A DNA stretch of 64,000 nt from an uncultured Clostridia bacterium (GTDB lineage: Bacteria; Bacillota; Clostridia; Christensenellales; UBA1242), in contig CALVYQ010000005.1 in assembly GCA_944372335.1 (NCBI GenBank), positions 1-64,000 on the forward strand, written 5' to 3'. The notes under the pieces are model-generated. The model ran no database searches and had not been told where the DNA came from. It was given only the letters and a program-made list of their open reading frames with translations. Numbering within the stretch: the first letter of the stretch is position 1; every line of letters starts with the position of its first letter. Below, piece after piece: positions 1 through 14,673 of this stretch. The position numbers were made by a program, and so were the translations under genes.

Positions 1-70
1 ATTGAGTGGACTCGAACCACCGACCCCCACCTTATCAGGGTGGTGCTCTAACCGACTGAGCTACAATCCT
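1..70 (-). tRNA. tRNA-Ile (GAU), cut by window edge
   Basis: The minus strand reads as a tRNA starting at position 70: acceptor AGGATTG, D-arm GTAGCTCAGTCGGTTAGAGC, anticodon stem CCACC/GGTGG around the loop CTGATAA (anticodon GAU), and a T-arm with TTCGAGT. The 3' acceptor strand stops after CAAT at the window edge, so the last acceptor bases, the discriminator and any CCA lie outside. This is the only intact-looking copy of the local array. A GAU tRNA-Ile often lies in rRNA operons, but no rRNA is visible here. Confidence 0.9.
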
Positions 71-87
71 ATATTAAATTTTTCTCG

Positions 88-171
88 GAATGAGTGGAGT
101 CGAACCACTGTCTCCAAACCCTAAATTTTTTCTTATCAGGGTGGTGCTCTAACCGACTGAGCTACAATCCT
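88..171 (-). pseudogene. chimeric tRNA-Ile remnant, copy 2
   Basis: The 5' half is identical to the intact tRNA-Ile from the acceptor strand through the anticodon loop (CTGATAA). The 3' anticodon stem is then lost and replaced by an A/T-rich run plus unrelated sequence. A normal-looking T-arm follows (AGTGG TTCGACT CCACT). The 3' acceptor strand (CATTCC) no longer pairs properly with AGGATTG, so this is not a functional tRNA. It looks like a recombinant between tRNA-Ile and the 3' half of another tRNA, later duplicated. Confidence 0.75.
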
Positions 172-187
172 ATATTAAGTTTTTCTT

Positions 188-269
188 GGAATGAGTGGAG
201 CCCGGTCACTGTCTCCAAACCCTAATTTTTTTTTCTTATCAGGGTGGTGGCTGACTGAGCTACAATCCA
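188..269 (-). pseudogene. decayed tRNA-Ile remnant, copy 3
   Basis: Same layout as the copy at 88-171, displaced by 100 bp, with further decay: part of the D-arm is deleted (GCTCAGTCAGCCACC) and the T-loop TTCGACT has become ACCGGGC. The A/T-rich insertion after the anticodon loop and the flank GGGTTTGGAGACAGT are shared with copy 2, so the two derive from one duplication. No function is expected as a tRNA. Confidence 0.7.
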
Positions 270-1525: not shown

Positions 1526-1735
1526 TTACTTACAAAAGTTTCCGCAGCCACAGTTACTTAAAAGTAAAAGGAAGAGGATTGTGCCACAGTCAACGTTGAT
1601 GCCTTTCATTCCGAATCCGCCACAACCGCAGCATTGAAGTAATAAGATGAGGAAGAGTAGGGAGCAGCAGTCGTTACCACACCCGCCACAATCTCTGTTC
1701 ATATCACCTTGGCAATTGCCTCCAAAAAAGTTCAT
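1526..1735 (-). CDS. Cys/Gly/Leu-rich small protein (69 aa)
   Basis: A 69-residue peptide built from two similar halves: a Cys/Gly/Asn-rich stretch followed by a Leu-rich run (CCSLLFLILLLQCCGCGG and TILFLLLLSNCGCGNFCK). It contains twelve cysteines, many as CGCG or CC. AGGAGG precedes the ATG, and a terminator follows. The Leu runs are short (about 8-9 residues) for full membrane spans. Composition resembles small Cys/Gly-rich spore-coat or bacteriocin-like peptides, but I cannot assign a family. No maturation, export or immunity gene is adjacent, which weakens a bacteriocin reading. Function unknown. Confidence 0.6.
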   Translation of the reverse strand: MNFFGGNCQGDMNRDCGGCGNDCCSLLFLILLLQCCGCGGFGMKGINVDCGTILFLLLLSNCGCGNFCK

Positions 1736-3361: not shown

Positions 3362-3391
3362 TTGTCTTTTTTTCCGTTTATTTGTTATAAT
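3362..3391 (+). promoter_or_regulatory. promoter of the ESCRT-III/Vps4-like operon
   Basis: TTGTCT, an 18-bp spacer, then TATAAT, placed about 33 bp before the GTG start at 3424. No other promoter of similar quality is obvious between the seven genes, which are separated by 11 bases or fewer or overlap. Confidence 0.6.
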
Positions 3392-3423: not shown

Positions 3424-4206
3424 GTGGATTTAATTAAGTTCAATGGGACAAACGAAAAGCTATTTTCTCGCATTGTAATTAGCGAGCTTTCGCCAAAAAC
3501 GACCTTGATTGTGCCAGAGACGCACAATGCTTTGGTAATTTATAACGGCGAAATGCTTCAAACGCTGTCTAAAGGAAGATATAAACTTGCGGAAATAGTC
3601 AATTTTGACAAAAATGACGCACTGCTTGAGATAATATTTGTGTCCAAGACGGCTAAGCTAAAACTACTGTGGGGAACGCCTAACAAATTTACACTTTTTG
3701 ACCCGGTGCTTAAAAAGTCCTATAAAATCGGAATGAGCGGTGAGTTTGAGGTTCAGGTATCCGACCCTAGAAAGTGCTTTTTATATCTTGTTGGAGCAGA
3801 AACAGATTTAACGGCAGACGCATTACAAGAGAGATTGATGTCTAGGCTGGTGGCGGAGATAGGCGATGCACTTTCAAAGTATGTTGTTGAGAACAATGTG
3901 CGATATGATCAGATTTTTATGTTAAGGCAGAAGATTGCAAATAGTGCGTTAGATAGAATTTCAGCAATTTTTCAAAAAGATTACGGCATTATGGTCTTTT
4001 CGCTTAGCATCTCAAACATCATCTTTGATGAAGACGAAATTATGGTGACAGAAGAAAAGGTGTGTCCAAATTGTAAAACAAAGTTGTCAGCTGATGCAAA
4101 ATTTTGTTACAATTGTGGTGAAAGGCAGGAAAAGTTATGCCCAAAGTGTCACACGGAAAATCAAGCTAATGCTAAATTTTGCAGTAATTGCGGAGAAAGA
4201 TTATAG
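3424..4206 (+). CDS. SPFH-type protein with two C-terminal zinc ribbons
   Basis: This is the first gene of the seven-gene operon (260 aa). Residues about 20-200 look like an SPFH/band-7 type domain: beta strands (TTLIVPETHNALVIYNGEML, YKIGMSGEFEVQVSDP) followed by long helices. Residues 212-260 carry two zinc ribbons, C214/C217/C228/C231 and C239/C242/C253/C256. Similar SPFH-zinc ribbon proteins exist in Bacillota, often labelled as virion core-like. No membrane segment is visible. It starts with GTG at 3424 after AAAGGA, because the ATG at 3418 is followed at once by a stop. SPFH proteins form ring or raft scaffolds at membranes, so a scaffold or platform role for the ESCRT-like machine is my inference. 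Confidence 0.7.
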   Translation: MDLIKFNGTNEKLFSRIVISELSPKTTLIVPETHNALVIYNGEMLQTLSKGRYKLAEIVNFDKNDALLEIIFVSKTAKLKLLWGTPNKFTLFDPVLKKSYKIGMSGEFEVQVSDPRKCFLYLVGAETDLTADALQERLMSRLVAEIGDALSKYVVENNVRYDQIFMLRQKIANSALDRISAIFQKDYGIMVFSLSISNIIFDEDEIMVTEEKVCPNCKTKLSADAKFCYNCGERQEKLCPKCHTENQANAKFCSNCGERL

Positions 4207-4215
4207 GAGGGAGTT

Positions 4216-4611
4216 ATGTTATATGTTTATATAGCCATTGCAGTGGTCATTGTGGGAGTTTCTATTTTCTTCTTGGTGAGAGAAGTTAAGAATCCTAAAA
4301 AGAAGCTGACAGAGGGCGGTGATGTTATAGATAGCAAGCGTAGAATTGAAAAGGCTGTGCAAAATTTAGAGAGCATGGAAGAACTTGTCAAAACAAACGA
4401 TAAGTTAAAAACAAAACTTGCCTCACTGAAAGAGATAATCCGCTTTTTAAATCCTGTTAAAAATGATAAGGTGAAAGTTATTGATGAAAAGATTTTAGCC
4501 CGTCTTGACGATATGAAAATTGAAATTAGCAAAGACGAAAACAGTGAAACGATTTGGCGTATGATTGAAGAGGTGGAAGGATATATTGCACAGAGGACGA
4601 AAGAGGTATGA
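4216..4611 (+). CDS. membrane-anchored coiled-coil protein (131 aa)
   Basis: One N-terminal membrane segment (residues about 3-22, YVYIAIAVVIVGVSIFFLV) is followed by a basic patch NPKKK and a charged helical region (residues 42-131), so the soluble part most likely faces the cytoplasm. The helical part has heptad-like hydrophobic spacing (IEKAVQNLESMEELVKTNDK). No family recognised. It begins nine bases after the SPFH gene with GGAGGG upstream, and its end overlaps the next start by four bases (ATGA), showing translational coupling. It could act as the membrane tether of the complex (inference). Confidence 0.65.
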   Translation: MLYVYIAIAVVIVGVSIFFLVREVKNPKKKLTEGGDVIDSKRRIEKAVQNLESMEELVKTNDKLKTKLASLKEIIRFLNPVKNDKVKVIDEKILARLDDMKIEISKDENSETIWRMIEEVEGYIAQRTKEV

Positions 4612-4961
4612 AAAGAGAACTTTCAGTCGATAAAAATTGCCAAAACTATGAAAGTGTCCTAAACGAGCTTAAACTCGGTTACATAAATTTGGAAGACGGC
4701 CTTTTTAAACTTGCTGAAACAAATTTTGATATGGTGATACTTGCAGATTCCACTTGTGCCGACGCCTATTGGGGATTGATGCTTAGCAAATACAAGATTA
4801 GACGAGAAGAGGCTCTTAAATCTAATGCAACACTCTATAAGGACATCATTAAGCTAAAAGAATACGAAAATGCCATGAAATATGCGGACGAAACAAAAAA
4901 AGCAATATTTAAAAATCTTCTTAGTGAAATATTAAAGTTTAACGAGGGAGATAACTACTAA
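4608..4961 (+). CDS. small TPR-like protein (117 aa)
   Basis: A helical 117-residue protein. Residues about 27-62 (GYINLEDGLFKLAETNFDMV, then STCADAYWGLMLSKYKIRR) fit a TPR-type helix pair in which a repeated load is followed by DAYWG. A closely similar segment occurs near the N-terminus of the last gene of the operon (AEKEFSKIISLYPKAYEAYYGRL), so the two proteins share a module. The start overlaps the stop of the preceding gene (ATGA). It is probably an adaptor, and I cannot name a family. Confidence 0.6.
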   Translation: MKRELSVDKNCQNYESVLNELKLGYINLEDGLFKLAETNFDMVILADSTCADAYWGLMLSKYKIRREEALKSNATLYKDIIKLKEYENAMKYADETKKAIFKNLLSEILKFNEGDNY

Positions 4962-4972
4962 AAGGAGAGGTT

Positions 4973-5578
4973 ATGTGGTGGCCATTTAAAAAAAATAAAT
5001 TTAAAAATATAGTGCGTGAGGATTTGGTCAATTCGATATGCGAACTTGAAAGACAGGAACGCACTGCGGAAGCGGAAATCATGCAAAAACAAAAGGAAAT
5101 AGATGCACTACTTGAAAAAGGCAAGACAGAAAAAACAGAGGATTTAAGATTGTTCTATGCTAAAAAGATAAATCATCTAAAAGAGGAAAAGGCAAGCATT
5201 GTGCAAAGAGGTATGTATCTTTTATACAATATAAGGCTTATGAACAAGCTGAAAGATGCTTATGATTCTAACACCTTTTTTAAGACCAAAACAAAAGTGC
5301 CACTTTCTGAACTTCTTGCCGACCAAAAAGGGCTAGCAAAATTTTTAAACAAGGCGTTAGAAACAAGAATTGCGTCTGAAGATGTGCTTACAAGTGCCGA
5401 TGACCTCTTCACTGAAATACAGGGGGCTTATGATAAAAACGAAAGTATCTATGGGCTTAAAAAGGAAGATGAGGAGCTACTTACAAGCTTTGAAAAAGAG
5501 GGAGCTTTAAAAGATGAAGAGATGATTGGTGTAGGCGAAGAAAAAACAAAAAAGAAAAAAGCAAAGATGGAGGAATAA
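4973..5578 (+). CDS. ESCRT-III/Snf7-like coiled-coil protein A (201 aa)
   Basis: An almost entirely helical 201-residue protein with the size and order of ESCRT-III subunits. A short aromatic/basic N-terminus (MWWPFKKNKF) resembles the membrane-inserting start of Snf7. A long charged helical hairpin follows at residues about 15-100 (LERQERTAEAEIMQKQKEI, then AKKINHLKEEKASIVQRG), then shorter helices. The C-terminal tail changes from acidic to Lys-rich. AAGGAG precedes the ATG. It sits directly before a second such protein (four bases between them) and a Vps4-like ATPase. By itself the sequence could be any coiled-coil protein or a PspA-type protein. The assignment rests on its neighbours as much as on its own sequence. 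Confidence 0.55.
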   Translation: MWWPFKKNKFKNIVREDLVNSICELERQERTAEAEIMQKQKEIDALLEKGKTEKTEDLRLFYAKKINHLKEEKASIVQRGMYLLYNIRLMNKLKDAYDSNTFFKTKTKVPLSELLADQKGLAKFLNKALETRIASEDVLTSADDLFTEIQGAYDKNESIYGLKKEDEELLTSFEKEGALKDEEMIGVGEEKTKKKKAKMEE

Positions 5579-5582
5579 AAAA

Positions 5583-6176
5583 ATGGGACTTTTTAAAACT
5601 AAACAACAAAAGGAAATTCAAAAAAAGATGCTTGTTAAAAGAACGGTAAATTCTATGAATAAGCAGATTGCAAGGCTGGAAGAACAGAAAAAGGTGTTTA
5701 TTGATGCAGCGAAGAGAGCCAAAGAGAAAAATCTTGACGCTCAATTTAATTTGGCTCTTTCTGGCTATCGTATGACCGTGCAACAGCAAAAGCGTGCTCA
5801 AGAGATGCTTTTAAATTTTGAAATTACCGCTCAGATGCGTGATGTCACCATGATGACCACCGAATTTCTAAAGGGTATGAGTGTGATAAGCAAGGAGATG
5901 AGTAAGCTTGCCGATGCTAAGGAATTTGAAAAGATACAGGCTCAATTTGAAGAGGCAATAACCGCTGTTGAAACACAGACTGAGCAAATCGACTCTTTTA
6001 TGGAGATAAGCCAAGAGAGTTTTGCTTCTGCTGGTAAGGCAAAGGACGGCAAGGATATCTCGGCAGATGATTTTGAAAAGTTCATAATGGAAGCTTCATC
6101 AAGCGAGCAAGCATCAAACGAGGATATCGACAAAGAGATTGAAGAGTTAAAGAAAAAAATTGACAGTGAAGCATAG
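5583..6176 (+). CDS. ESCRT-III-like protein B with MIM1-like C-terminus (197 aa)
   Basis: This is the closest ESCRT-III look-alike here. The start MGLFKTKQQKEIQKK resembles the MGLF...K-E start of Vps24/CHMP3. A basic helix with IARLEEQKKVFIDAAKRAKE matches the typical RQIxxIxREEEKVKRSIKEAAKKG region in spacing. Then come helices with repeated Met/Thr (TMMTTEFLKGMSVISKEMSK), an acidic linker and a last helix. In that helix I182, I186, L189 and K190 occupy positions 4, 8, 11 and 12 of a MIM1 motif, the element by which ESCRT-III tails bind MIT domains. The Arg of MIM1 position 7 is Glu here. The basic N-half and acidic C-half match the family. Nine bases later begins an ATPase with an MIT-like domain. 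Confidence 0.7.
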   Translation: MGLFKTKQQKEIQKKMLVKRTVNSMNKQIARLEEQKKVFIDAAKRAKEKNLDAQFNLALSGYRMTVQQQKRAQEMLLNFEITAQMRDVTMMTTEFLKGMSVISKEMSKLADAKEFEKIQAQFEEAITAVETQTEQIDSFMEISQESFASAGKAKDGKDISADDFEKFIMEASSSEQASNEDIDKEIEELKKKIDSEA

Positions 6177-6184
6177 GAGAAATT

Positions 6185-7294
6185 GTGGAAGATATCGAAC
6201 TTCTAAATGACACCTTCAACCTTTATATGCAAAAAGGCAAAGAGGCGAAAGAAAAAGGAAATTATACGCTTGCCAAGCGTAACTTTATGCTTGCTGGCGA
6301 AACGATGATGAAACTTGCAAAGGAAAGCAAAGGTTCTCTTCGTGAAGCAAGAATGAAAAGAGCTAGGCGTATTGTTGAGCTATCGTCAAATATGCAAGAG
6401 AAGAAAAAAGAGGAAAAGGATTCTGGTGATGAAGATATCAAAAAATGGCAGTCAGCAGAGATTCCGAATATCCACTTTTCCGATGTTGCAGGGCTTGAAG
6501 ATGTTAAAAGGGCAATAAAAATTAGAATGATCAATGCCTATCTTCACCCAGAAAAATACAAGCTTTACAACAAAAAAACGGGCGGTGGTGTGCTTCTGTA
6601 TGGGCCTCCGGGAACGGGCAAAACGATGATAGCAAAGGCTATTGCGTGCGAGGTTGGTGCTAAATTTTATTCGGTTAAAGGCTCTGATATTGTCTCTAAA
6701 TGGGTCGGCGAAAGTGAAAAAAACATAAACGCTCTCTTTGAAGAGGCTAACAAGCAGGACAGAGCAATAATTTTTATAGATGAGATGGACAGTTTGCTTG
6801 GTAAGCGTGGGGTGGATACACATAATGACAAGCGTGTCAATGAGTTTCTGCAACAGATTGACGGCTTTAGCGGAAAAAATCCTAATCTTCTTCTTTTGGG
6901 AGCCACAAATAGGCCTTGGGATATCGACAGTGCAGTGCTTCGTTCTGGACGTTTTTCGCAGAAGATATATATTCCTCTTCCAGACGCAAAGGCACGAAAA
7001 TTTATGATTGAAAAGAGCATGAAAAATGTGCCGATTTCAAAGGACTTTGATGTGGAAAAAATTGTGGCACAAACAGAGATGTTTAGTGGTGCAGATATTG
7101 ATGAACTTTGTGACAGGGCAAAGGACGAGCCTCTTTTAAAGGCTATTGAAGAAGATAGAGTGGTGGAGGTGACAAACGCCGATTTTGACAATGTTTTAAA
7201 AGTATTTCCACCAAGCGTCACAGAGGCTGATTTAAAGCTTTTTGACAAATTTAACGCTGAGATAAACAGCCTTATTTCAAGAAAGAAAAAATAG
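6185..7294 (+). CDS. Vps4/CdvC-type AAA ATPase with N-terminal MIT-like domain
   Basis: 369 residues. Residues 1-75 are three predicted helices (NDTFNLYMQKGKEAKEKGNY, TLAKRNFMLAGETMMKLAK, LREARMKRARRIVELSSNM) as in MIT domains, then a charged linker. The AAA core has Walker A GPPGTGKT (140-147), pore loop KWVGESEKN (172-180), Walker B IIFIDE (195-200), sensor ATNRPWD (240-246) and arginine fingers in LRSGRF (252-257) before IYIPLPDAKAR. The tail PPSVTEADLKLFDKF (342-356) matches the C-terminal helix of the Vps4/katanin clade. That combination separates it from FtsH, ClpX and proteasomal ATPases. Vps4 threads and disassembles ESCRT-III polymers, and the two genes before it would encode the substrate. 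It uses GTG after AGGAGA. Confidence 0.85.
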   Translation: MEDIELLNDTFNLYMQKGKEAKEKGNYTLAKRNFMLAGETMMKLAKESKGSLREARMKRARRIVELSSNMQEKKKEEKDSGDEDIKKWQSAEIPNIHFSDVAGLEDVKRAIKIRMINAYLHPEKYKLYNKKTGGGVLLYGPPGTGKTMIAKAIACEVGAKFYSVKGSDIVSKWVGESEKNINALFEEANKQDRAIIFIDEMDSLLGKRGVDTHNDKRVNEFLQQIDGFSGKNPNLLLLGATNRPWDIDSAVLRSGRFSQKIYIPLPDAKARKFMIEKSMKNVPISKDFDVEKIVAQTEMFSGADIDELCDRAKDEPLLKAIEEDRVVEVTNADFDNVLKVFPPSVTEADLKLFDKFNAEINSLISRKKK

Positions 7295-7299
7295 GAAAG

Positions 7300-10200
7300 A
7301 TGAGAGAAAGAGTTTGTAAAAATTGCGGAGGAAAGCGTTATAGTGAAGTTGGACAGAACAGATATAAATGTTTGTTCTGTGGGACTATCTATGTCGATGA
7401 GTATTCTAGCGGTGAAGAAGAGATTTTAATTGTTGGTGCGTATGAGAAACTGAGAGAATATAAGTTTGAAAGTGCGGAAAAAGAATTCAGCAAAATAATC
7501 TCGCTCTATCCAAAAGCTTATGAAGCCTATTATGGAAGATTGCAGGCAAGAAACAGAGTGGTGTATTTTGTCAGCAAGGAGGGTGGCAAACGCTATCCAT
7601 CTTTTTTTGGAAGTGTTATTCCATCATATTTTGAAGATGAGGACTATAAAAAGGCGATAGAGTATGCTCCAAAGGAAATTGCCAAAAGCTATGAGGCACA
7701 GGCAGAATATGTGGAGAGTGTAAGAAAGGAATTTTTGAAAAACAATCTTCCACCTTATGAAGTAGTTTTTAATGCAAATGCTAAATCTAAAAATTACGAT
7801 AAGGTCAAAGAGGCTTTAGGACAATTTAAAACCTTTTGTCGGGAGGAAGCAAAAAAATCTGAAGGTAATCTTGAAGCACGGCTATTTCAGGCTATCTCTA
7901 CTTGTAAATGCGAAGTTTTTTTAGTCGAAGATGAAAAGGATTTAGCATCTCCTAAACTAAAAAATCTTTATGACCGATTTATTTATAGGATAGAAACAAA
8001 AGAGCGTTTTCCTTCCTCTTTCATTGTTGTATATGATGAAAAAAAAGTGAAACTCGAAAGCATAAAAAAGCTCTTTCCATTTTTACAAGTACTTATTTCT
8101 GTCAACGATATATCTTTCATCTTAGATTTAATAAATCAGATTACCAAGGCAATTGAAAGAAATTACAACGAAACGGTTACGCTTTCAAAACGCACCGTGG
8201 AGCAAGCTGAACCGACAAAGGTAGAACCAACGCCTGTTATAGCAAAGGAACTTGGGCACTATAACGTGGAGAATATTCCGCTTTCCGACAAGAACAAGAC
8301 TAAGTGGATTTTTTATAGCCTCAAAAATGGTGATTTTGCTACAGCTGAAAAGCTTATTGATGAAGAGAAGTCAGAAAATCGAGGAGAAATCTACTTTGCT
8401 TCACTTCTATGTCAAGAAAAAATAAAAACGCCGGAAGAATTTTTCGCAAGTTTGGATAATTTTAAAAACAAGGAACTTCTTGAGGATATTTTAAAATACT
8501 CAGACAAGGAGTTTGCAAATAACTTTTTAAATCGATGGGAAGAACTTGTGGTTAAAGAGGACGATGCGGACACGTATGTTACATATCTTCCTTTTCTTCT
8601 TCCTTATGATAACTCTTGGAGAAGTGAATTTTTAAAAAATGCTGAGGAAAAGGCAATAGCTTCGCAAAACAATGCACTTATTGAATGTGTTGAAAAAGCG
8701 CTAAGCGGAGATGAGATTGTGAACTTCTATTTTCAACTTGCTCAAGAGTCCGGAAACGAAGAGTATTATAACAAGATATTAAAAATTAATAACGGACACG
8801 CACCAAGTTTATATGCACTCTTTATGCATCATTTTTCGACTGTCACTGATAAGCTAACTTTTCGTGAAGATGAAGCAATAAAAAATGTGTTACAATTTTG
8901 TTCGCTTGAGCAGAAAGAGGGCTTTTTGAATAATCTTATAAACTTGATACTTGATGTGTGCTACTATGACTTAGATAGTGCGGAAAAACAACTTGATTAT
9001 TATCTTTCATATTATGACAATCCTCAACCATCACTTATCAAGATTGCTAAATTTTTAAAGGAACATGGCTTCTTCCGTTTGGCAGAAAAATATATAAGTA
9101 TAGCAATCGGCAATGACAAGAAAAACGCTTCGCTTTATTGGGAGCTTATTGAGATTAAGGCTCACGCAAGGAGCGAGGCAGAACTACTAACCACAAATGT
9201 GAAAATTTCAGAGATGGACGATTGGTCAAGCGTGCTTAGTTACGCCAGCGAAGAGGAAGCGGAACATTATGCCCAAATTGTTGCAAATGCCAACACAAAT
9301 AATGCTAAAAAAATCTTTCGTGATGAAGTTTTAGATAAAATAAAATTAAAGAAAAAGTTGCAAGAGTTTATCAGTCGAAATGATAGGATATTAAGCGAGG
9401 TGGAAGATAAGACAACTGCCGGATATTATCATGAGCAAATTCACGCCTTTGAAAATTACTTTGAAAAGATCGACAGTGCAAACAATCTAGAAGAGTATTT
9501 AAATGTGGTAGATAGAGTGCAAGAGAGACTTAGTGCTATGGGGCTTACTCTAGATAGTTCAATCAGTCTTGCAGATATTGCCACAAAGAAAGAGCGTTAT
9601 GCTACAATCGTTAAAGAGGCCAAATCAAGAGAGGATAAATATCTTACAGATGAAGAGGTGGCAAGACGTAAGAAAAAGAGAGATTTGACATTATTTGCCT
9701 GTCTTTGCTATGCACCTATGCTCTTAGTGACTTTACTTCTCATCTTTGTTCTTATTTTTCCTAAGGGAATGTATCTTGGCTTGTCTCAGGACGCAGTTAT
9801 TGTGCTGACGCTTTTGTCGGTACTTCTTGGGATAGGAGCTTTTATATACAATCTTGCCAAGAAAAATACCACAGAATTTTATCGTATTTCCAGACTTGTT
9901 CTTTTTGCACTTGGAATAGTTAATTTATTTTTAATGCTAATCGGCTTCTATATCTCTCCGCCAAATTTAGAGGCAAATTCGGCAAGGGAATTTTCTAAAC
10001 TTGCTCACAATGCAAAATATGCCAATATTTTAGTCATGGACGATTTTGATATGGCAAATTATAGTTGGACACCTTTCACTTTCTATGGAGAAATTGATGG
10101 TAATGGGCATAGGATTTATAATCTTTCTTCAAACGCTCTCTTTCAAAATTTAGATGGGAAAGTAAGCGATTTAAATGTGGAGTTTATAGACTATATCGGC

Positions 10201-10968
10201 ACAGAATTTTATGGTATGGCAAAAGTGTTAAATGGAGAGATAGAAAATTGTTCTGTTAAAGCAAATATACAACTTCAAGGCGAGGGGATGTCTAGTGGAC
10301 TTGTTGGAGATATGCGTGGCGGAGAAATCTTCCATTCAACTGCGGAGCTTGTGGTAAATATTAGAGGGAAAGTGACCTTAGGTGGGCTTGTCGGCAACAT
10401 GAGAGAAGACGCTATCTTAAGAGAAACTTATGCAAGTCTTTCTGGGACAGTCTTAGGAGAAGGCAACATTGGCGGGCTTGTCGGCGAAAACAATGGTGGT
10501 GTGATTGAAGAAAGTTTTGCTCATACTAATTTAGATGCCACAATAGACAACTCTAATATTGGCGGACTTGTCGGATTAAATCGTGGCGATATCGTAAATT
10601 CGTATGCACAAGGAGCACTTTTAGTTAATGGCGGAATAAACGATGTTGGCGGACTTGTAGGAGAGTTTTTCAGGCGTAATCGTGTGATTGAAAAATCGTA
10701 TAGCAATGTCAATATCAATGCCGAGTTTGGTGCTATCGTTGGAAGATATGAGGAAGGTAAAATACAAAATTCTTTTGCTTTTTCTGAGAGTGAACTATAT
10801 CTATCTAAAAATATAAATGACCTTCTTGCACAGAATCCTGTCAATTCAAGAGTGATTAGTAGCGTTTCTGAATTTACCAACACCTTTGGACTTGACGAAG
10901 AAACATGGATAATTTCAAATGGAAATGCTCCAACTCTTGTCTGGTTCGAACGTAGTGGAAATATTTGA
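7300..10968 (+). CDS. zinc ribbon-TPR-membrane-GLUG repeat protein (1222 aa)
   Basis: Last gene of the operon, six bases after the ATPase. Domains in order: zinc ribbon (C6, C9, C24, C27); a TPR-like module (about 45-85) shared with the small TPR-like protein upstream; a long helical region to about 790; two or three membrane segments (about 798-820, 830-850, 866-890); then an external part with four GGLVG repeats at residues 1028, 1058, 1088 and 1117, spaced 29-30 residues, which are GLUG motifs of beta-helical surface proteins. The soluble TPR/zinc part would be cytoplasmic and the GLUG part outside. It could link the internal machine to the cell surface (inference). A terminator follows. 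Confidence 0.75.
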   Translation: MRERVCKNCGGKRYSEVGQNRYKCLFCGTIYVDEYSSGEEEILIVGAYEKLREYKFESAEKEFSKIISLYPKAYEAYYGRLQARNRVVYFVSKEGGKRYPSFFGSVIPSYFEDEDYKKAIEYAPKEIAKSYEAQAEYVESVRKEFLKNNLPPYEVVFNANAKSKNYDKVKEALGQFKTFCREEAKKSEGNLEARLFQAISTCKCEVFLVEDEKDLASPKLKNLYDRFIYRIETKERFPSSFIVVYDEKKVKLESIKKLFPFLQVLISVNDISFILDLINQITKAIERNYNETVTLSKRTVEQAEPTKVEPTPVIAKELGHYNVENIPLSDKNKTKWIFYSLKNGDFATAEKLIDEEKSENRGEIYFASLLCQEKIKTPEEFFASLDNFKNKELLEDILKYSDKEFANNFLNRWEELVVKEDDADTYVTYLPFLLPYDNSWRSEFLKNAEEKAIASQNNALIECVEKALSGDEIVNFYFQLAQESGNEEYYNKILKINNGHAPSLYALFMHHFSTVTDKLTFREDEAIKNVLQFCSLEQKEGFLNNLINLILDVCYYDLDSAEKQLDYYLSYYDNPQPSLIKIAKFLKEHGFFRLAEKYISIAIGNDKKNASLYWELIEIKAHARSEAELLTTNVKISEMDDWSSVLSYASEEEAEHYAQIVANANTNNAKKIFRDEVLDKIKLKKKLQEFISRNDRILSEVEDKTTAGYYHEQIHAFENYFEKIDSANNLEEYLNVVDRVQERLSAMGLTLDSSISLADIATKKERYATIVKEAKSREDKYLTDEEVARRKKKRDLTLFACLCYAPMLLVTLLLIFVLIFPKGMYLGLSQDAVIVLTLLSVLLGIGAFIYNLAKKNTTEFYRISRLVLFALGIVNLFLMLIGFYISPPNLEANSAREFSKLAHNAKYANILVMDDFDMANYSWTPFTFYGEIDGNGHRIYNLSSNALFQNLDGKVSDLNVEFIDYIGTEFYGMAKVLNGEIENCSVKANIQLQGEGMSSGLVGDMRGGEIFHSTAELVVNIRGKVTLGGLVGNMREDAILRETYASLSGTVLGEGNIGGLVGENNGGVIEESFAHTNLDATIDNSNIGGLVGLNRGDIVNSYAQGALLVNGGINDVGGLVGEFFRRNRVIEKSYSNVNINAEFGAIVGRYEEGKIQNSFAFSESELYLSKNINDLLAQNPVNSRVISSVSEFTNTFGLDEETWIISNGNAPTLVWFERSGNI

Positions 10969-10980
10969 TTTTTTTGCATA

Positions 10981-11010
10981 AAAACTTATGTGTTTTTCAT
11001 AAGTTTTTTT
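10981..11010 (+). terminator. terminator of the ESCRT-III/Vps4-like operon
   Basis: AAAACTTATG, a short loop, then CATAAGTTTTTTT: a clean hairpin with T-run immediately after the stop at 10968. It closes the seven-gene unit. Confidence 0.85.
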
Positions 11011-11137: not shown

Positions 11138-12892
11138 ATGTTTAAGGTATTTAAATACCTAAAATGGGTTGATTATCTTTATCTATTCTTTGTGGTAGGA
11201 CTAATTGTTTTACAAGTTTGGCAGGATTTAAAATTGCCAACATATATGGCAACGATAATTAGGTATCTACAACAGTCAGATGTGCCTAACCGTGTTAGTC
11301 AAATTCTCATAAACGGTGGGTATATGCTTGCCTGTGCAGTTGGAAGTCTTTTGTCGGCGGTTATTGTCAACTTTTTCGTGGCAAAGATAAGTGCAAGATT
11401 ATCTGCAAATCTTAGATTTGCTCTATATGCAAAGGTGGAGAGTTTTTCGCTTACAGAACTCAACAAATTTTCCACAGCAAGCTTGATAACAAGAACTACA
11501 AACGATATAAACAACGTTCAAATGCTTATTGCTATGGGCACTCAGTCACTCATAAAAGCACCAATTATGGCAGTTTGGGCAATTCTAACAATTGTTGGAA
11601 AGGGCTGGCAGTGGTCGGTGGCAACAGCAGGAGCAGTTGTGGCACTTGTCATAATCACACTTGTAGTTTTCGTCTTTGCTGTTCCAAAATTTAAAAAGAT
11701 TCAGACTTTAACAGATAACTTAAACCGTGTAACACGTGAAAACTTGACAGGTATAAGAGTTATCCGTGCATCTAATGCAGAGAAATATCAAAACGATAAG
11801 TTTGATGAATGCAACACAGCTCTCACAAAGAACAACCTTTCTGCCAACAGAATAATGGCGATAATGAATCCGGGAATGTCACTTATAATGACAGGGCTGA
11901 CGCTTGCTATATATTGGATTGGAGCATATATTGTCAAAGATCCTGTTGTCGATATTTCAAATATGTTGACCTTTACCTATTATGCAATGCAGGTTGTTAT
12001 GGCGTTTATGCTTCTTATTGTTATCTTCATTTTACTTCCACGTTCACTTGTGTCTGCTAGAAGAATAAATGAGGTATTATCCACCCACAACTCCATAATC
12101 TCTGGCAATTTTAAAGATGAAAAATTCTATGATGAAGCTGTTGGCAAGGAAGATTATGTGGTGTTCAAAAACGTCTCCTTTAAATATGCTGATGCCAATG
12201 AATATGTTTTAAATGATATATCTTTTAGCGTCAAAAAGGGAGAAACTGTGGCGTTTATAGGTTCAACGGGAAGTGGAAAAAGCACGCTCATAAATCTTAT
12301 TCCAAGGCTATACGATGCCACTGAGGGTGAGGTTCTAATAGATGGCGTCAATGTCAAAGACTATGACTCAAAAACACTCAACAAAAAGATTGGATATACT
12401 CCTCAGCGTGGGGTTCTATTTAGCGGAACGGTGAAATCAAATATAGATTTTGGAGACAACAATGCAGACGAGGAGACGATTAAAAACTCTTTGAAGATTG
12501 CACAAGCATCTAACTTTGTTTCAAAGATGGAAGGAGGCTTAGACGCACGCATAGCCCAAGGCGGAACTAATGTCTCTGGAGGACAAAAACAGCGTCTAAG
12601 CATCGCACGTGCCATTGCAAGAAAGCCGGATATCTTCATCTTTGATGACAGTTTCTCAGCACTTGACTTTAAAACCGACAGAAAGCTTAGAACAGCTCTT
12701 AGAAAGAACACCGAGGGCACAACAAAATTTATTGTGGCTCAACGAATTGGAACAATCAAAGATGCCGACAAAATCATCGTGCTTGACAGTGGTAATATGG
12801 TAGGAATTGGAACGCATGAGGAGCTTCTTAAAAATTGTCCTGTCTATAAAGAGATTGCTTTGTCACAACTTTCCGAGGAGGAATTACAATGA
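11138..12892 (+). CDS. heterodimeric ABC exporter subunit, degenerate-site partner (584 aa)
   Basis: A full half-transporter: six membrane segments (residues about 15-310) then an ATP-binding domain with Walker A GSTGSGKST, signature VSGGQKQRL and Walker B IFIFDDSFSALD. The residue after the Walker B Asp is Asp instead of the catalytic Glu, as in the degenerate-site partner of heterodimeric exporters such as TM287/288 and BmrCD. Its stop overlaps the start of the second subunit by four bases (ATGA). The pair probably exports peptides, drugs or lipids. The substrate cannot be read from sequence. It has its own start region, separate from the operon before it. Confidence 0.9.
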   Translation: MFKVFKYLKWVDYLYLFFVVGLIVLQVWQDLKLPTYMATIIRYLQQSDVPNRVSQILINGGYMLACAVGSLLSAVIVNFFVAKISARLSANLRFALYAKVESFSLTELNKFSTASLITRTTNDINNVQMLIAMGTQSLIKAPIMAVWAILTIVGKGWQWSVATAGAVVALVIITLVVFVFAVPKFKKIQTLTDNLNRVTRENLTGIRVIRASNAEKYQNDKFDECNTALTKNNLSANRIMAIMNPGMSLIMTGLTLAIYWIGAYIVKDPVVDISNMLTFTYYAMQVVMAFMLLIVIFILLPRSLVSARRINEVLSTHNSIISGNFKDEKFYDEAVGKEDYVVFKNVSFKYADANEYVLNDISFSVKKGETVAFIGSTGSGKSTLINLIPRLYDATEGEVLIDGVNVKDYDSKTLNKKIGYTPQRGVLFSGTVKSNIDFGDNNADEETIKNSLKIAQASNFVSKMEGGLDARIAQGGTNVSGGQKQRLSIARAIARKPDIFIFDDSFSALDFKTDRKLRTALRKNTEGTTKFIVAQRIGTIKDADKIIVLDSGNMVGIGTHEELLKNCPVYKEIALSQLSEEELQ

Positions 12893-14673
12893 GTAGGCGT
12901 ATAGTAACCGGAGAAAAGCCGGCAAAAGGACAATTTAAAAAGTCCATGGCAAAACTTATAAAATATTGCAAAAAATTCTATTGGCTTATCGGTGTCGCTC
13001 TTGCTTTAGGAGCAATATCTGTTGTCTGCCAAATAATCTCACCGAACCTCATAAGTGAACTTACAGAAATCATAAGCGAGGGGCTTGTAGGTGGAGGAGT
13101 TGACTATTCAGCTGTCACACGCACAGCACTGACCATGCTTACACTTGCTTTGTTTATGGCTGTTCTTGGATATTTTCAACACTTCATCATGGCAACTGCC
13201 ACACAAAAGATAGTCTTTAAATTCAGAGACGATATTTCATGGAAGATTAATAAGCTTCCTCTGCAATATTTCGACACGCATCTATATGGTGACACACTAA
13301 GTCGAGTGACCAACGATGTTGACACGATAGGGCAGACAATGAATCAATCTGTGTCCAGCCTTTTCTCTAACATAATTCTGTTTGTTGGCGTTGTGATTGC
13401 TATGTTTGTCACACAATGGATAATGGCATTTACAGTTATTGTGGCAACCTTAATTGGTTTTGTTATCATCGTGCTTTGTCTATCAAAATCACAAAAGTAT
13501 TTCATTATGCAACAGAAAAACTTGGGCGACCTCAATGCTCATATTGAAGAGGTATATTCTGGACATAATGTTGTGAAACTCTTTAATGCGGAAAAGGATA
13601 AGGGCGAGGAATTTACAAAGATTAATAAAAAGCTATACTTAAGTGCTTGGAAATCACAATTTTTATCAAATGCCATGATGCCTATTATGGGCTTTGTTGG
13701 AAACTTTGCGTTTGTTGCAGTGTGCGTGGTGGGAGCTGTGCTTGCCGCAAACGGAACGATAGGCTTAGGCCCAATTGCAGCATTTATGATTTACGCTAGA
13801 ATGTTTGCTAACCCACTATCTCAAATTGCTCAATCACTTACAAGTTTGCAATCTACATCTGCGGCTTGCGGTCGTGTTTTTGAATTTTTGGAAGAAAAAG
13901 AACTTGAAAATGAAGAAAACAAAACCGAGATGCTCACAGATGTTAAGGGTGAAATTGAATTTGACCATGTGAGATTTGGTTACACTGAGGACAAAATCAT
14001 CATAAAAGACTTCTCTGTCAAGGTGTATGCGGGTGAGAAGGTGGCAATTGTTGGGCCTACCGGTGCAGGCAAAACAACCCTTGTAAATCTTCTTATGCGT
14101 TTTTATGAGATAAATTCTGGTGATATACGAATTGATGGCAAGTCGATTAAAGATTTGACACGGGAAAATATCCATGACCTATTTGGAATGGTGCTTCAAG
14201 ACACTTGGCTTTTTCAGGGTACAATCAAGGAAAATTTAAGATACAACAAGGGAAACGTCACCGATGAGCAGATAATTGAAGCGTGCAAGAGCGTTGGGGT
14301 TGACCACTTCATTCAAACGCTCCCGCAAGGATATGACACCGTGATTGACGATGCTGTGAACCTATCAGCAGGGCAAAAACAACTCCTAACCATTGCAAGA
14401 ACAATGGTGGCAAACAACCCTATGCTTATCTTAGATGAGGCAACCTCATCAGTTGATACAAGAACGGAAGAGCTCATACAAAAAGCTATGGATAAACTTA
14501 TGGAAGGACGTACATCTTTCATAATCGCCCACCGCCTTTCCACAATTAAAAATGCCGACATAATTCTTGTTTTGAAAGATGGTGACGTTATTGAAAGCGG
14601 AAATCATGAGGAGCTTATGGCAAAGGGTGGCTTCTATGCCGATTTATATAACAGTCAGTTTTCTGAAAACTAA
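12889..14673 (+). CDS. heterodimeric ABC exporter subunit, catalytic partner (594 aa)
   Basis: Second half-transporter, with an N-terminal cytoplasmic extension of about 30 residues, six membrane segments (about 33-320) and an ATP-binding domain with Walker A GPTGAGKTT, signature LSAGQKQLL and canonical Walker B LILDEATSSVD including the catalytic Glu. The canonical site complements the degenerate site of the preceding subunit, so the two form one exporter. GAGGAGGAATTAC within the end of the preceding gene is the ribosome binding site. No obvious terminator hairpin follows the stop, so read-through into the next small gene is possible. Confidence 0.9.
   Translation: MSRRIVTGEKPAKGQFKKSMAKLIKYCKKFYWLIGVALALGAISVVCQIISPNLISELTEIISEGLVGGGVDYSAVTRTALTMLTLALFMAVLGYFQHFIMATATQKIVFKFRDDISWKINKLPLQYFDTHLYGDTLSRVTNDVDTIGQTMNQSVSSLFSNIILFVGVVIAMFVTQWIMAFTVIVATLIGFVIIVLCLSKSQKYFIMQQKNLGDLNAHIEEVYSGHNVVKLFNAEKDKGEEFTKINKKLYLSAWKSQFLSNAMMPIMGFVGNFAFVAVCVVGAVLAANGTIGLGPIAAFMIYARMFANPLSQIAQSLTSLQSTSAACGRVFEFLEEKELENEENKTEMLTDVKGEIEFDHVRFGYTEDKIIIKDFSVKVYAGEKVAIVGPTGAGKTTLVNLLMRFYEINSGDIRIDGKSIKDLTRENIHDLFGMVLQDTWLFQGTIKENLRYNKGNVTDEQIIEACKSVGVDHFIQTLPQGYDTVIDDAVNLSAGQKQLLTIARTMVANNPMLILDEATSSVDTRTEELIQKAMDKLMEGRTSFIIAHRLSTIKNADIILVLKDGDVIESGNHEELMAKGGFYADLYNSQFSEN

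What the first reader, a model, noticed from the sequence alone, without database searches (positions are those of the whole stretch)
3424..10968. Seven-gene operon that looks like a bacterial ESCRT-III/Vps4 membrane-remodelling system
Seen: one promoter, seven genes with gaps of 11 bases or fewer or overlaps, one terminator. Order: SPFH-zinc ribbon protein, membrane-anchored coil, TPR-like protein, two ESCRT-III-sized helical proteins, a Vps4-clade ATPase with an MIT-like domain, and a zinc ribbon-TPR-membrane-GLUG protein. Known: in eukaryotes and Asgard/TACK archaea, Vps4/CdvC disassembles ESCRT-III polymers by binding MIM tails through its MIT domain. Bacterial PspA/Vipp1 are ESCRT-III relatives but have no Vps4-type partner. 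Inference: this is a complete ESCRT-like module in a bacterium, with its own membrane scaffold and surface partner. It could act in division, vesicle release, envelope repair or phage response.
Basis: partly seen in the sequence, partly recalled or inferred. Interest (0 to 1): 0.95.

Follow-up and report, generated by a model that had tools for sequence, protein, structure and literature searches.

The report
Bacterial ESCRT-III and Vps4 membrane operon
A Clostridia genome carries a seven-gene operon in which a relative of ESCRT-III, the membrane-cutting filament protein of archaea and eukaryotes, sits right beside a relative of its recycling motor Vps4 and near a membrane-scaffold (SPFH) gene; together they likely form an ATP-driven membrane-remodelling machine, a pairing that published surveys say bacteria lack.

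Summary
Seven same-strand genes (3424-10968) are packed with gaps of at most 11 bases. Gene 6 is a Vps4-type AAA ATPase: its N-terminal domain matches the Asgard Vps4 MIT domain (HHalign E 6.2e-9), and an AAA tree splits it together with archaeal Vps4/CdvC from CDC48, PAN-like and FtsH ATPases (98/97). Gene 5 with its paralogs matches Asgard ESCRT-III over nearly full length (E 1.1e-8, 2.1e-10 with more sequences). In the same test PspA scores 1.1e-8, while gene 5 versus PspA gives 0.0038. The window protein alone gives no Snf7 hit. Gene 4 is ESCRT-III-like only by a weak fold match. The order SPFH, gene 2, gene 4, gene 5, ATPase is kept in 48 of 48 loci that hold all five genes, titled Caccovivens, Coproplasma, Christensenellaceae and other Clostridia, plus one Bacilli MAG. 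Some paralogs are fused to FtsK or RuvB-like motors. Published surveys confine ESCRT-III plus Vps4 systems to archaea and eukaryotes, so this is a new, bacterial variant. Most likely it is an SPFH-anchored membrane-repair or remodelling machine, like PspA-YdjGHI with its own disassembly motor. Polymerisation, the MIT-tail contact and the role are inferred, not shown.

The parts
3362..3391 (+). promoter-like site (TTGTCT, 18, TATAAT) upstream of gene 1
   Evidence: not beyond chance in number
3424..4206 (+). gene 1: SPFH (Band_7_1) protein with C-terminal double zinc ribbon; inferred membrane scaffold
   Evidence: Pfam PF13421 9.9e-14, PF12773 4.1e-12; homologue in 50 of 57 loci
4216..4611 (+). 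gene 2: short helical protein with one N-terminal TM-like segment here (some relatives lack that N-terminal part)
   Evidence: homologue in 48 of 57 loci
4608..4961 (+). gene 3: small protein sharing a module with gene 7 homologues; found in the closer relatives only
   Evidence: 31 of 57 loci; cross-hit
4973..5578 (+). gene 4 (helA): helical-hairpin protein, possible second ESCRT-III-fold subunit
   Evidence: model md92cdc48a213; Foldseek top 11 rows all ESCRT-III/Vipp1, best E 0.16; no sequence match
5583..6176 (+). gene 5 (helB): ESCRT-III/Snf7-superfamily protein
   Evidence: HHalign of the family vs Asgard ESCRT-III E 1.1e-8 and 2.1e-10; Pfam Snf7 in 17 of 44 family members at E <= 1, not in the window member; predicted helices 7-48, 52-107, 112-150, 161-171, 180-196
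6096..6173 (+). last 26 residues of gene 5, with a MIM1-like helix
   Evidence: pattern in 49 of 54 homologues, shuffled mean 0.34; also in 16 of 30 Asgard ESCRT-III and 9 of 21 PspA tails, so not diagnostic
6185..7294 (+). gene 6: Vps4-type AAA ATPase
   Evidence: NCBIfam CdvC 9.2e-62 over residues 5-357; tree; Walker A, Walker B and SKWVGESEK present
6218..6403 (+). MIT domain of gene 6 (residues 12-73 aligned)
   Evidence: HHalign vs Asgard Vps4 N-termini prob 95.9, E 6.2e-9
7300..10968 (+). gene 7: large protein with N-terminal CxxC pairs, three TM-like stretches and GLUG repeats
   Evidence: homologue in 46 of 57 loci
10980..11008 (+). A/T-rich hairpin followed by T's, likely the terminator
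   Evidence: z -3.47

Best explanation
This Clostridia operon encodes an ESCRT-III-family protein next to a Vps4-family AAA ATPase with an MIT domain, together with an SPFH-zinc-ribbon protein, and the set likely works as a bacterial ESCRT machine that remodels or repairs the cytoplasmic membrane. Shown by sequence: the family membership of genes 1, 5 and 6, and the conserved gene order. Inferred: (1) genes 1 and 2, and perhaps gene 7, form the membrane platform; (2) gene 5, probably with gene 4, polymerises on the inner face through its basic N-terminal half; (3) the MIT domain of gene 6 binds the MIM1-like tail helix of gene 5; (4) the ATPase ring threads and strips subunits, so that the filament changes shape and is recycled. 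The most likely use is envelope repair or stress, as in PspA-YdjGHI of Bacillus subtilis, but with a dedicated disassembly motor that PspA lacks. It is accessory, and FtsZ likely remains the divider.
For: ATPase: CdvC profile over residues 5-357; MIT by HHalign E 6.2e-9, reversed controls 0.0032 and 0.0015; Vps4_C over the Pfam cut-off in L064, one of two homologues scanned singly; tree split {gene 6 family + Vps4/CdvC} vs {CDC48, PAN-like, FtsH} 98/97, 98/95 in an earlier tree without PAN-like rows whose bootstrap had not quite settled; Walker A, Walker B and pore loop intact in the window. ESCRT-III: HHalign 1.1e-8 over columns 3-194 (reversed 0.0067; best of 20 block shuffles 0.02); 2.1e-10 with 47 Asgard sequences. 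An Asgard ESCRT-III profile run over 6606 ORFs (set size) gave 18 hits outside the archaeal ESCRT loci at E <= 10: 9 PspA, 8 of this family (best 7.7e-5 and 1.2e-4, the rest 0.011-0.16) and one 155-aa ORF from a weak PspA hit. Pfam Snf7 is the commonest Pfam hit of the family at E <= 1: 17 of 44, best 2.8e-8; it is not among the 25 of 31 families listed for helA. Basic N-half, acidic C-half as in Asgard ESCRT-III, unlike PspA. Coupling: helB in 53 of 57 ATPase loci, the four misses being contigs that begin inside the ATPase; 48 of 48 in order. Repair role: a band-7 protein with C-terminal zinc ribbon is given as the Bacillus PspA partner (PMC11237479, passages; named YdjL there, presumably YdjI), and YdjI is needed for PspA membrane localisation (PMC8581546, passages); 0 of 61 genomes (own and relatives) have PspA; FtsZ is in 58 of 61 genomes of the genus sample, own included; helB is in the own genome plus 14 of 36 congeners.
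Confidence: 0.78

Rival explanations
1. A cargo-sorting or vesicle-forming ESCRT, like the archaeal Meth_adaptin loci: SPFH-zinc-ribbon and the large TM protein gather cargo, and ESCRT-III/Vps4 buds it away from the cytoplasm.
For: PMC10936438 (passages) describes Vps4/ESCRT-III loci with an SPFH + coiled coil + zinc ribbon protein; gene 7 has TM-like stretches and GLUG repeats.
Against: No adaptin, GOLD or winged-helix profile hit over cut-off in the window operon, though genes 2 to 5 are unannotated; no evidence of vesicles; a thick wall would hinder release (recalled, not checked for this host).
Confidence: 0.25
2. A division or septum-closing helper that acts with FtsZ; the FtsK-fused paralogs would couple DNA clearing to membrane scission.
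For: ESCRT-III/Vps4 divides many archaea (PMC7615534, passages); paralogs fused to FtsK_alpha + FtsK_SpoIIIE.
Against: helB absent from 22 of 36 congeners, while FtsZ is in 58 of 61 genomes of the genus sample; the window operon has no FtsK fusion.
Confidence: 0.12
3. An anti-phage or other conflict system that uses an AAA ATPase, as in IetAS or other ATPase-protease pairs.
For: PADLOC IetA models hit gene 6 (best 3.7e-40), with weaker TRIP13, DolB and mad8 hits; one relative's locus holds a trypsin-like protease (L203); patchy distribution.
Against: The best IetA model covers residues 88-326, the AAA part (a weaker one starts at 40), with 136.5 bits against 217.7 and 209.1 for CDC48 and CdvC; NCBIfam IteA 117.9 bits, cut-off 510; the other six proteins have no PADLOC hit at E <= 0.01; no phage record matches helB and no viral contig was confirmed.
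Confidence: 0.1
4. Genes 4 and 5 are ordinary coiled-coil substrates or adaptors, and the similarity to ESCRT-III is convergence of helical sequence.
For: Helical-bundle noise in fold searches; no significant PDB sequence hit to ESCRT-III; the narrow helB profile finds no Asgard ORF.
Against: Reversed and block-shuffled profiles are five to six orders of magnitude weaker than the real match; three other helical families from these loci (helA, gene 2, the 345-aa proteins) do not match Asgard ESCRT-III; Snf7 is the commonest Pfam hit of the family; the partner ATPase independently has an MIT domain.
Confidence: 0.08

Closest known systems
Archaeal ESCRT-III/Vps4 (Asgard) and CdvB/CdvC
   Same: ESCRT-III-family protein encoded near an MIT-AAA Vps4 ATPase; C-terminal tail helix; ATPase grouping
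   Different: In Bacillota; no winged-helix or other ESCRT profile hit in the operon; SPFH, gene 2 and large gene 7 partners; gene 6 family and the 12 archaeal Vps4/CdvC rows sampled form separate clades
PspA-YdjGHI of Bacillus subtilis
   Same: SPFH protein with C-terminal zinc ribbon and membrane partners encoded with an ESCRT-III-superfamily protein (PMC11237479, PMC8581546, passages)
   Different: No Vps4 in that operon; helB family matches Asgard ESCRT-III (1.1e-8) much better than PspA (0.0038)
Meth_adaptin ESCRT loci of Methanobacteriales (PMC10936438, passages)
   Same: SPFH + zinc ribbon protein together with ESCRT-III and Vps4
   Different: Archaeal; adaptin-appendage and GOLD proteins described there, no such profile hit here
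Vps4-like ATPases transferred to bacteria (PMC11237479, passages; e.g. ACB74714.1)
   Same: Vps4-type ATPase in bacteria beside membrane proteins
   Different: There snf7 is reported as displaced by an unrelated TPR-6TM protein; here an ESCRT-III-family gene is kept. That protein was not available for my tree
IetA (PADLOC)
   Same: AAA domain
   Different: Much weaker match than CdvC or CDC48; partner protease not found in the operon

Membership tests
Vps4/CdvC ATPases | N-terminal MIT domain | tested here: met
   HHalign prob 95.9, E 6.2e-9, reversed controls 0.0032 and 0.0015; Asgard MIT profile: L069 1.7e-9, window 0.0086. Pfam MIT is under cut-off (L064 16.5 of 30 bits)
Vps4/CdvC ATPases | AAA domain groups with Vps4/CdvC against CDC48, PAN, FtsH | tested here: met
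   98/97; katanin, spastin and eukaryotic VPS4 were not in the tree; the PAN-like and CDC48 labels are mine, from length and position
Vps4/CdvC ATPases | Vps4_C oligomerisation region | tested here: inconclusive
   Window 20.8 bits vs cut-off 21.3; L064 22.6 bits, over cut-off
Vps4/CdvC ATPases | Catalytic Walker motifs and KW pore loop | tested here: met
   All present in the window; by pattern Walker A 35 of 36, Walker B 34 of 36, SKWxGESEK 19 of 36 family members
Vps4/CdvC ATPases | Disassembles ESCRT-III filaments with ATP | not testable with these tools
   needs biochemistry
ESCRT-III superfamily (gene 5) | Profile homology to ESCRT-III/Snf7 | tested here: met
   Wide family profile: HHalign 1.1e-8, 2.1e-10; Pfam Snf7 in 17 of 44 members at E <= 1, not in the window member; narrow profile only 0.0017
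ESCRT-III superfamily (gene 5) | Long alpha1-alpha2 hairpin, alpha3-alpha4, short alpha5, tail helix | tested here: inconclusive
   Predicted helices fit in number and length, pLDDT 66.5; fold searches not decisive
ESCRT-III superfamily (gene 5) | Basic N-terminal half, acidic C-terminal half | tested here: met
   Median +9 / -13 in 54 helB; Asgard (30) +9.5 / -18; PspA (21) -1 / -2
ESCRT-III superfamily (gene 5) | MIM motif for the MIT domain | tested here: inconclusive
   Loose tail pattern 49 of 54, shuffled mean 0.34, but also 16 of 30 Asgard and 9 of 21 PspA; strict pattern 32 of 106, 1 of 30 Asgard, 5 of 21 PspA
ESCRT-III superfamily (gene 5) | Polymerises on membranes | not testable with these tools
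   needs biochemistry
ESCRT-III superfamily (gene 4) | Profile homology to ESCRT-III/Snf7 or PspA | tested here: not met
   HHalign 0.044, 0.055, 0.10, 0.093; Snf7 not among the 25 of 31 Pfam families listed for 39 members
ESCRT-III superfamily (gene 4) | ESCRT-III fold | tested here: inconclusive
PspA/IM30 | PspA_IM30 profile | tested here: not met
   No PspA hit for the seven window proteins; HHalign family vs PspA 0.0038 over 17 columns; 0 of 61 genomes, own included, hit by PF04012
IetAS defence | IetA with an IetS protease | tested here: not met
   gene 6 matches IetA less well than CdvC; no PADLOC hit in the six other proteins

The most novel reading that the evidence does not exclude
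Bacteria have their own branch of the ESCRT-III/Vps4 machine, sister to the archaeal Vps4 systems. It diversified by duplication (up to three ESCRT-III paralogs in one locus) and by fusing the ESCRT-III domain to FtsK-type DNA pumps and RuvB-type motors, so that filament-driven membrane scission or anchoring is coupled to DNA translocation.
Probability: 0.35. Interest if true: 0.97.

Novelty: new variant of a known kind. Interest (0 to 1): 0.9.

Why it matters
[quoted passage not shown] An MIT-Vps4 plus ESCRT-III operon, kept in order across many Clostridia MAGs and a Bacilli MAG, removes that boundary. It gives a bacterial setting in which to ask how an SPFH scaffold, a filament and a disassembly motor act together, and it makes the origin of ESCRT (transfer between domains, or an older root) testable with a new outgroup. 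One search for ESCRT-III with FtsK or RuvB (15 of 93 papers listed) showed no paper on such fusions.

Tried and rejected
Rejected: PspA membership; anti-phage IetAS. No phage record matches helB, and no viral contig was confirmed. A plasmid search with gene 6 matched 2153 records, all under 60% identity; only five were listed, four of them over about 70% of the query (the AAA part) and one over 98% at 27% identity; their organisms are haloarchaea as far as I recall, and they were not followed. PDB sequence searches with helA and helB gave no significant ESCRT-III chain. A strict MIM1 regular expression proved useless as a discriminator. Testing whether the 345-aa protein of paralog loci equals gene 2 + gene 4 gave only suggestive values (gene 2 part 5.1e-4, helA part 0.042, joined 0.0013). 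Looking for an empty site failed: in loci L274-L284 the flavin-reductase-like neighbour was found, but none of the other eleven queries taken from the window matched beside it. A phylum-wide sample found the family only in the own genome (1 of 398).

Rows dropped or chosen by me: of 80 loci, L024-L080 (57) were analysed; the 23 others (L081-L103, archaeal but for L098) were used at most as outgroups. A1 holds 43 of the 54 helB and A2 39 of the 52 helA sequences at hand, mostly near-duplicates left out. A4 holds 44 sequences that I chose, out of 128 helB-profile hits. Of 31 Asgard ESCRT-III loci 30 gave an ORF that passed a length filter; one of them (L132) looks like an off-frame ORF; one search used 47 ORFs chosen by profile instead. 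For MIT, 9 of the 13 ATPase ORFs extracted were used (two lacked the N-terminus with the chosen start, two were divergent). For the tree, near-duplicates and some long or divergent rows were dropped, among them the long-branch L209; the tree, with L209 kept, shows the same split (98/95).
Full report
What is there. Seven ORFs lie on the + strand at the stated coordinates, with spacings of 9, -4, 11, 4, 8 and 5 bases. Gene 1 is an SPFH protein (Band_7_1, 9.9e-14) with a C-terminal double zinc ribbon; gene 6 is an AAA ATPase; gene 7 carries GLUG repeats. Gene 2 has one and gene 7 three TM-like stretches. Genes 2 to 5 have no Pfam or NCBIfam match over cut-off. The hairpin after gene 7 folds well (z -3.47); the promoter site is not beyond chance in number.

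Gene 6 is a Vps4-type ATPase. Of the NCBIfam profiles, CDC48 (2.8e-64) and CdvC (9.2e-62) score best, and among those listed only CdvC is matched from residue 5 to 357, N-terminal domain included. [quoted passage not shown] reversed controls 0.0032 and 0.0015), and an Asgard MIT profile run over my ORF set finds the family with E down to 1.7e-9, the window ATPase at 0.0086. Pfam's own MIT model stays under its cut-off (16.5 of 30 bits in L064). The Vps4_C region is borderline in the window (20.8 bits, cut-off 21.3) and over cut-off in L064. In a maximum-likelihood tree of 82 AAA domains the gene 6 family is one side of a branch (96/92), Vps4/CdvC is another (100/97), and the two together are split from CDC48, PAN-like and FtsH rows with 98/97. 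Rooted on those, gene 6 is sister to the archaeal Vps4/CdvC rows sampled (12). Eukaryotic VPS4, katanin and spastin were not available, so I cannot say which branch of that wider group is nearest. Walker A, Walker B and the SKWVGESEK pore loop are present in the window; the pore-loop motif is shared by CDC48 D2 domains.

Gene 5 is an ESCRT-III-superfamily protein. The window sequence alone finds nothing, but the family does. Searching the order gave paralogs (41 of 396 genomes, 22 of 142 genera; three of the 41 are weak, 5.8e-7 to 3e-4). The narrow helB alignment gave only a hint against Asgard ESCRT-III (prob 15, E 0.0017), and its HMM found no Asgard or PspA ORF up to E 10. A 44-row alignment with the paralogs matches Asgard ESCRT-III over columns 3-194 with E 1.1e-8, while the reversed profile gives 0.0067 and the best of 20 block-shuffled profiles 0.02; the same test for PspA versus Asgard ESCRT-III gives 1.1e-8. 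With 47 Asgard sequences it is 2.1e-10 (PspA was not run against that set). Against PspA the family reaches only 0.0038. In the other direction, an Asgard ESCRT-III profile run over 6606 ORFs (set size) gave 18 hits outside the archaeal ESCRT loci at E <= 10: nine PspA, eight of this family (two under 0.001) and one short ORF from a weak PspA locus. Pfam Snf7 is the commonest Pfam hit at E <= 1, in 17 of 44 members, best 2.8e-8; the four scores that I saw singly are under the cut-off. AlphaFold2 gives helices 7-48, 52-107, 112-150, 161-171 and 180-196 (pLDDT 66.5), the ESCRT-III order of helices as I recall it. Fold searches are not decisive: CdvB and VIPP1 rows are at ranks 4, 8, 11 and 14 without significant E, and the first VIA row is a fusion with the ESCRT-III protein Shrub, tied with unrelated coils. 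Charge is split as in Asgard ESCRT-III. The tail ends in a helix with a MIM1-like pattern in 49 of 54 homologues (shuffled mean 0.34), close to the MIM1 consensus (recalled) but with E in place of R at one position; the same loose pattern is in 16 of 30 Asgard ESCRT-III and 9 of 21 PspA tails, so it is compatible with, not proof of, an MIT contact.

Conservation. In 57 loci found with gene 6 (L024-L080), helB is found in 53, helA in 51, SPFH in 50, gene 2 in 48, gene 7 in 46 and gene 3 in 31. The four loci without helB begin inside the ATPase gene. All 48 loci with the five core genes have them in the same order and strand; they include L025 (Caccovivens), L049 (Coproplasma), L057 (Christensenellaceae) and L068 (Bacilli). 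helB lies within 150 bases of the ATPase in 40 of 53; in at least nine of the other 13 a gene 7-like ORF lies between. In the genus, helB is in the own genome and 14 of 36 others, and FtsZ is in 58 of 61 genomes, own included, so the system is accessory and probably not the main divider.

Variants. In some relatives the ESCRT-III-like domain is fused to FtsK_alpha + FtsK_SpoIIIE (L202, L204; FtsK_SpoIIIE alone in L205) or to RuvB-like motors (L206, L208); L203 and L211 hold fusions of similar length that were not scanned. Up to three helB-like genes sit in one locus. Some ATPases carry two AAA modules behind an MIT-like N-terminus (sequences; L216 is hit by the Asgard MIT profile at 0.008). 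Neighbours include a trypsin-like protease (L203) and an FtsH-type protease (L209).

How it most likely works. By homology, helB (and probably helA) would polymerise on the cytoplasmic membrane, the SPFH, gene 2 and gene 7 proteins would place and anchor the filament, and the ATPase would bind helB tails by its MIT domain and pull subunits out. For the Bacillus PspA operon, a band-7 protein with a C-terminal zinc ribbon is described (PMC11237479, passages) and the SPFH protein YdjI is needed to bring PspA to the membrane (PMC8581546, passages). The same scaffold type here, and the fact that none of 61 genomes (own and relatives) has a PspA match, favour a repair or stress role. Archaeal loci with SPFH-zinc-ribbon, ESCRT-III and Vps4 (PMC10936438, passages) are the closest full parallel and favour cargo or vesicle formation instead; I rank that second.

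Novelty. [quoted passage not shown] PMC7615534 (passages) that bacteria lack a clear Vps4 homologue; PMC11237479 (passages) reports transferred Vps4-like ATPases in bacteria with snf7 displaced, and some bacterial PspA or Snf7 members with other AAA ATPases. Searches of the held open-access library (listings; passages of five papers read) showed no description of this operon; most subscription papers and all preprints are outside that library. I therefore file it as a new variant of a known kind: ESCRT, in bacteria.

Noticed in passing
L204:9769-11670, L202:10506-12419, L205:6719-8254: ESCRT-III-like domain fused N-terminally to an FtsK/SpoIIIE-type DNA translocase, in the position where FtsK usually has its membrane part (recalled).
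   Followed up: partly
L206:4966-6633, L208:1301-4186: ESCRT-III-like domain (Pfam Snf7 24.5 and 19.9 bits, under cut-off) fused to RuvB-like AAA motors; a separate RuvB-like protein stands next to helB in L210.
   Followed up: partly
L216:6287-8377, L209:4584-6689: ATPases with an MIT-like N-terminus followed by two different AAA modules (one looks SpoVK/CbxX-like, recalled) in helB loci.
   Followed up: no
L203:9110-10285, L209:9921-11264: Trypsin-like protease with Sel1 repeats, and an FtsH-type (M41) AAA protease, inside paralog loci.
   Followed up: no
window 1526-1735 (-): 69-aa Cys/Gly-rich small protein conserved next to the operon in L026, L028, L033, L061 and L075.
   Followed up: no
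window 11138-14673: Pair of ABC exporter-like genes kept downstream of the operon in the close relatives checked (L024, L026, L028, L033, L061, L075).
   Followed up: partly
L074: Short contig titled Candidatus Gastranaerophilales with genes 6 and 7 at high similarity; more likely a binning error than a cyanobacterial carrier.
   Followed up: no
own genome and 60 relatives: No PspA/IM30 match in any of 61 genomes, with or without the operon.
   Followed up: no
G029: A 98% complete congener without an FtsZ match (and without helB); assembly gap or real loss not checked.
   Followed up: no
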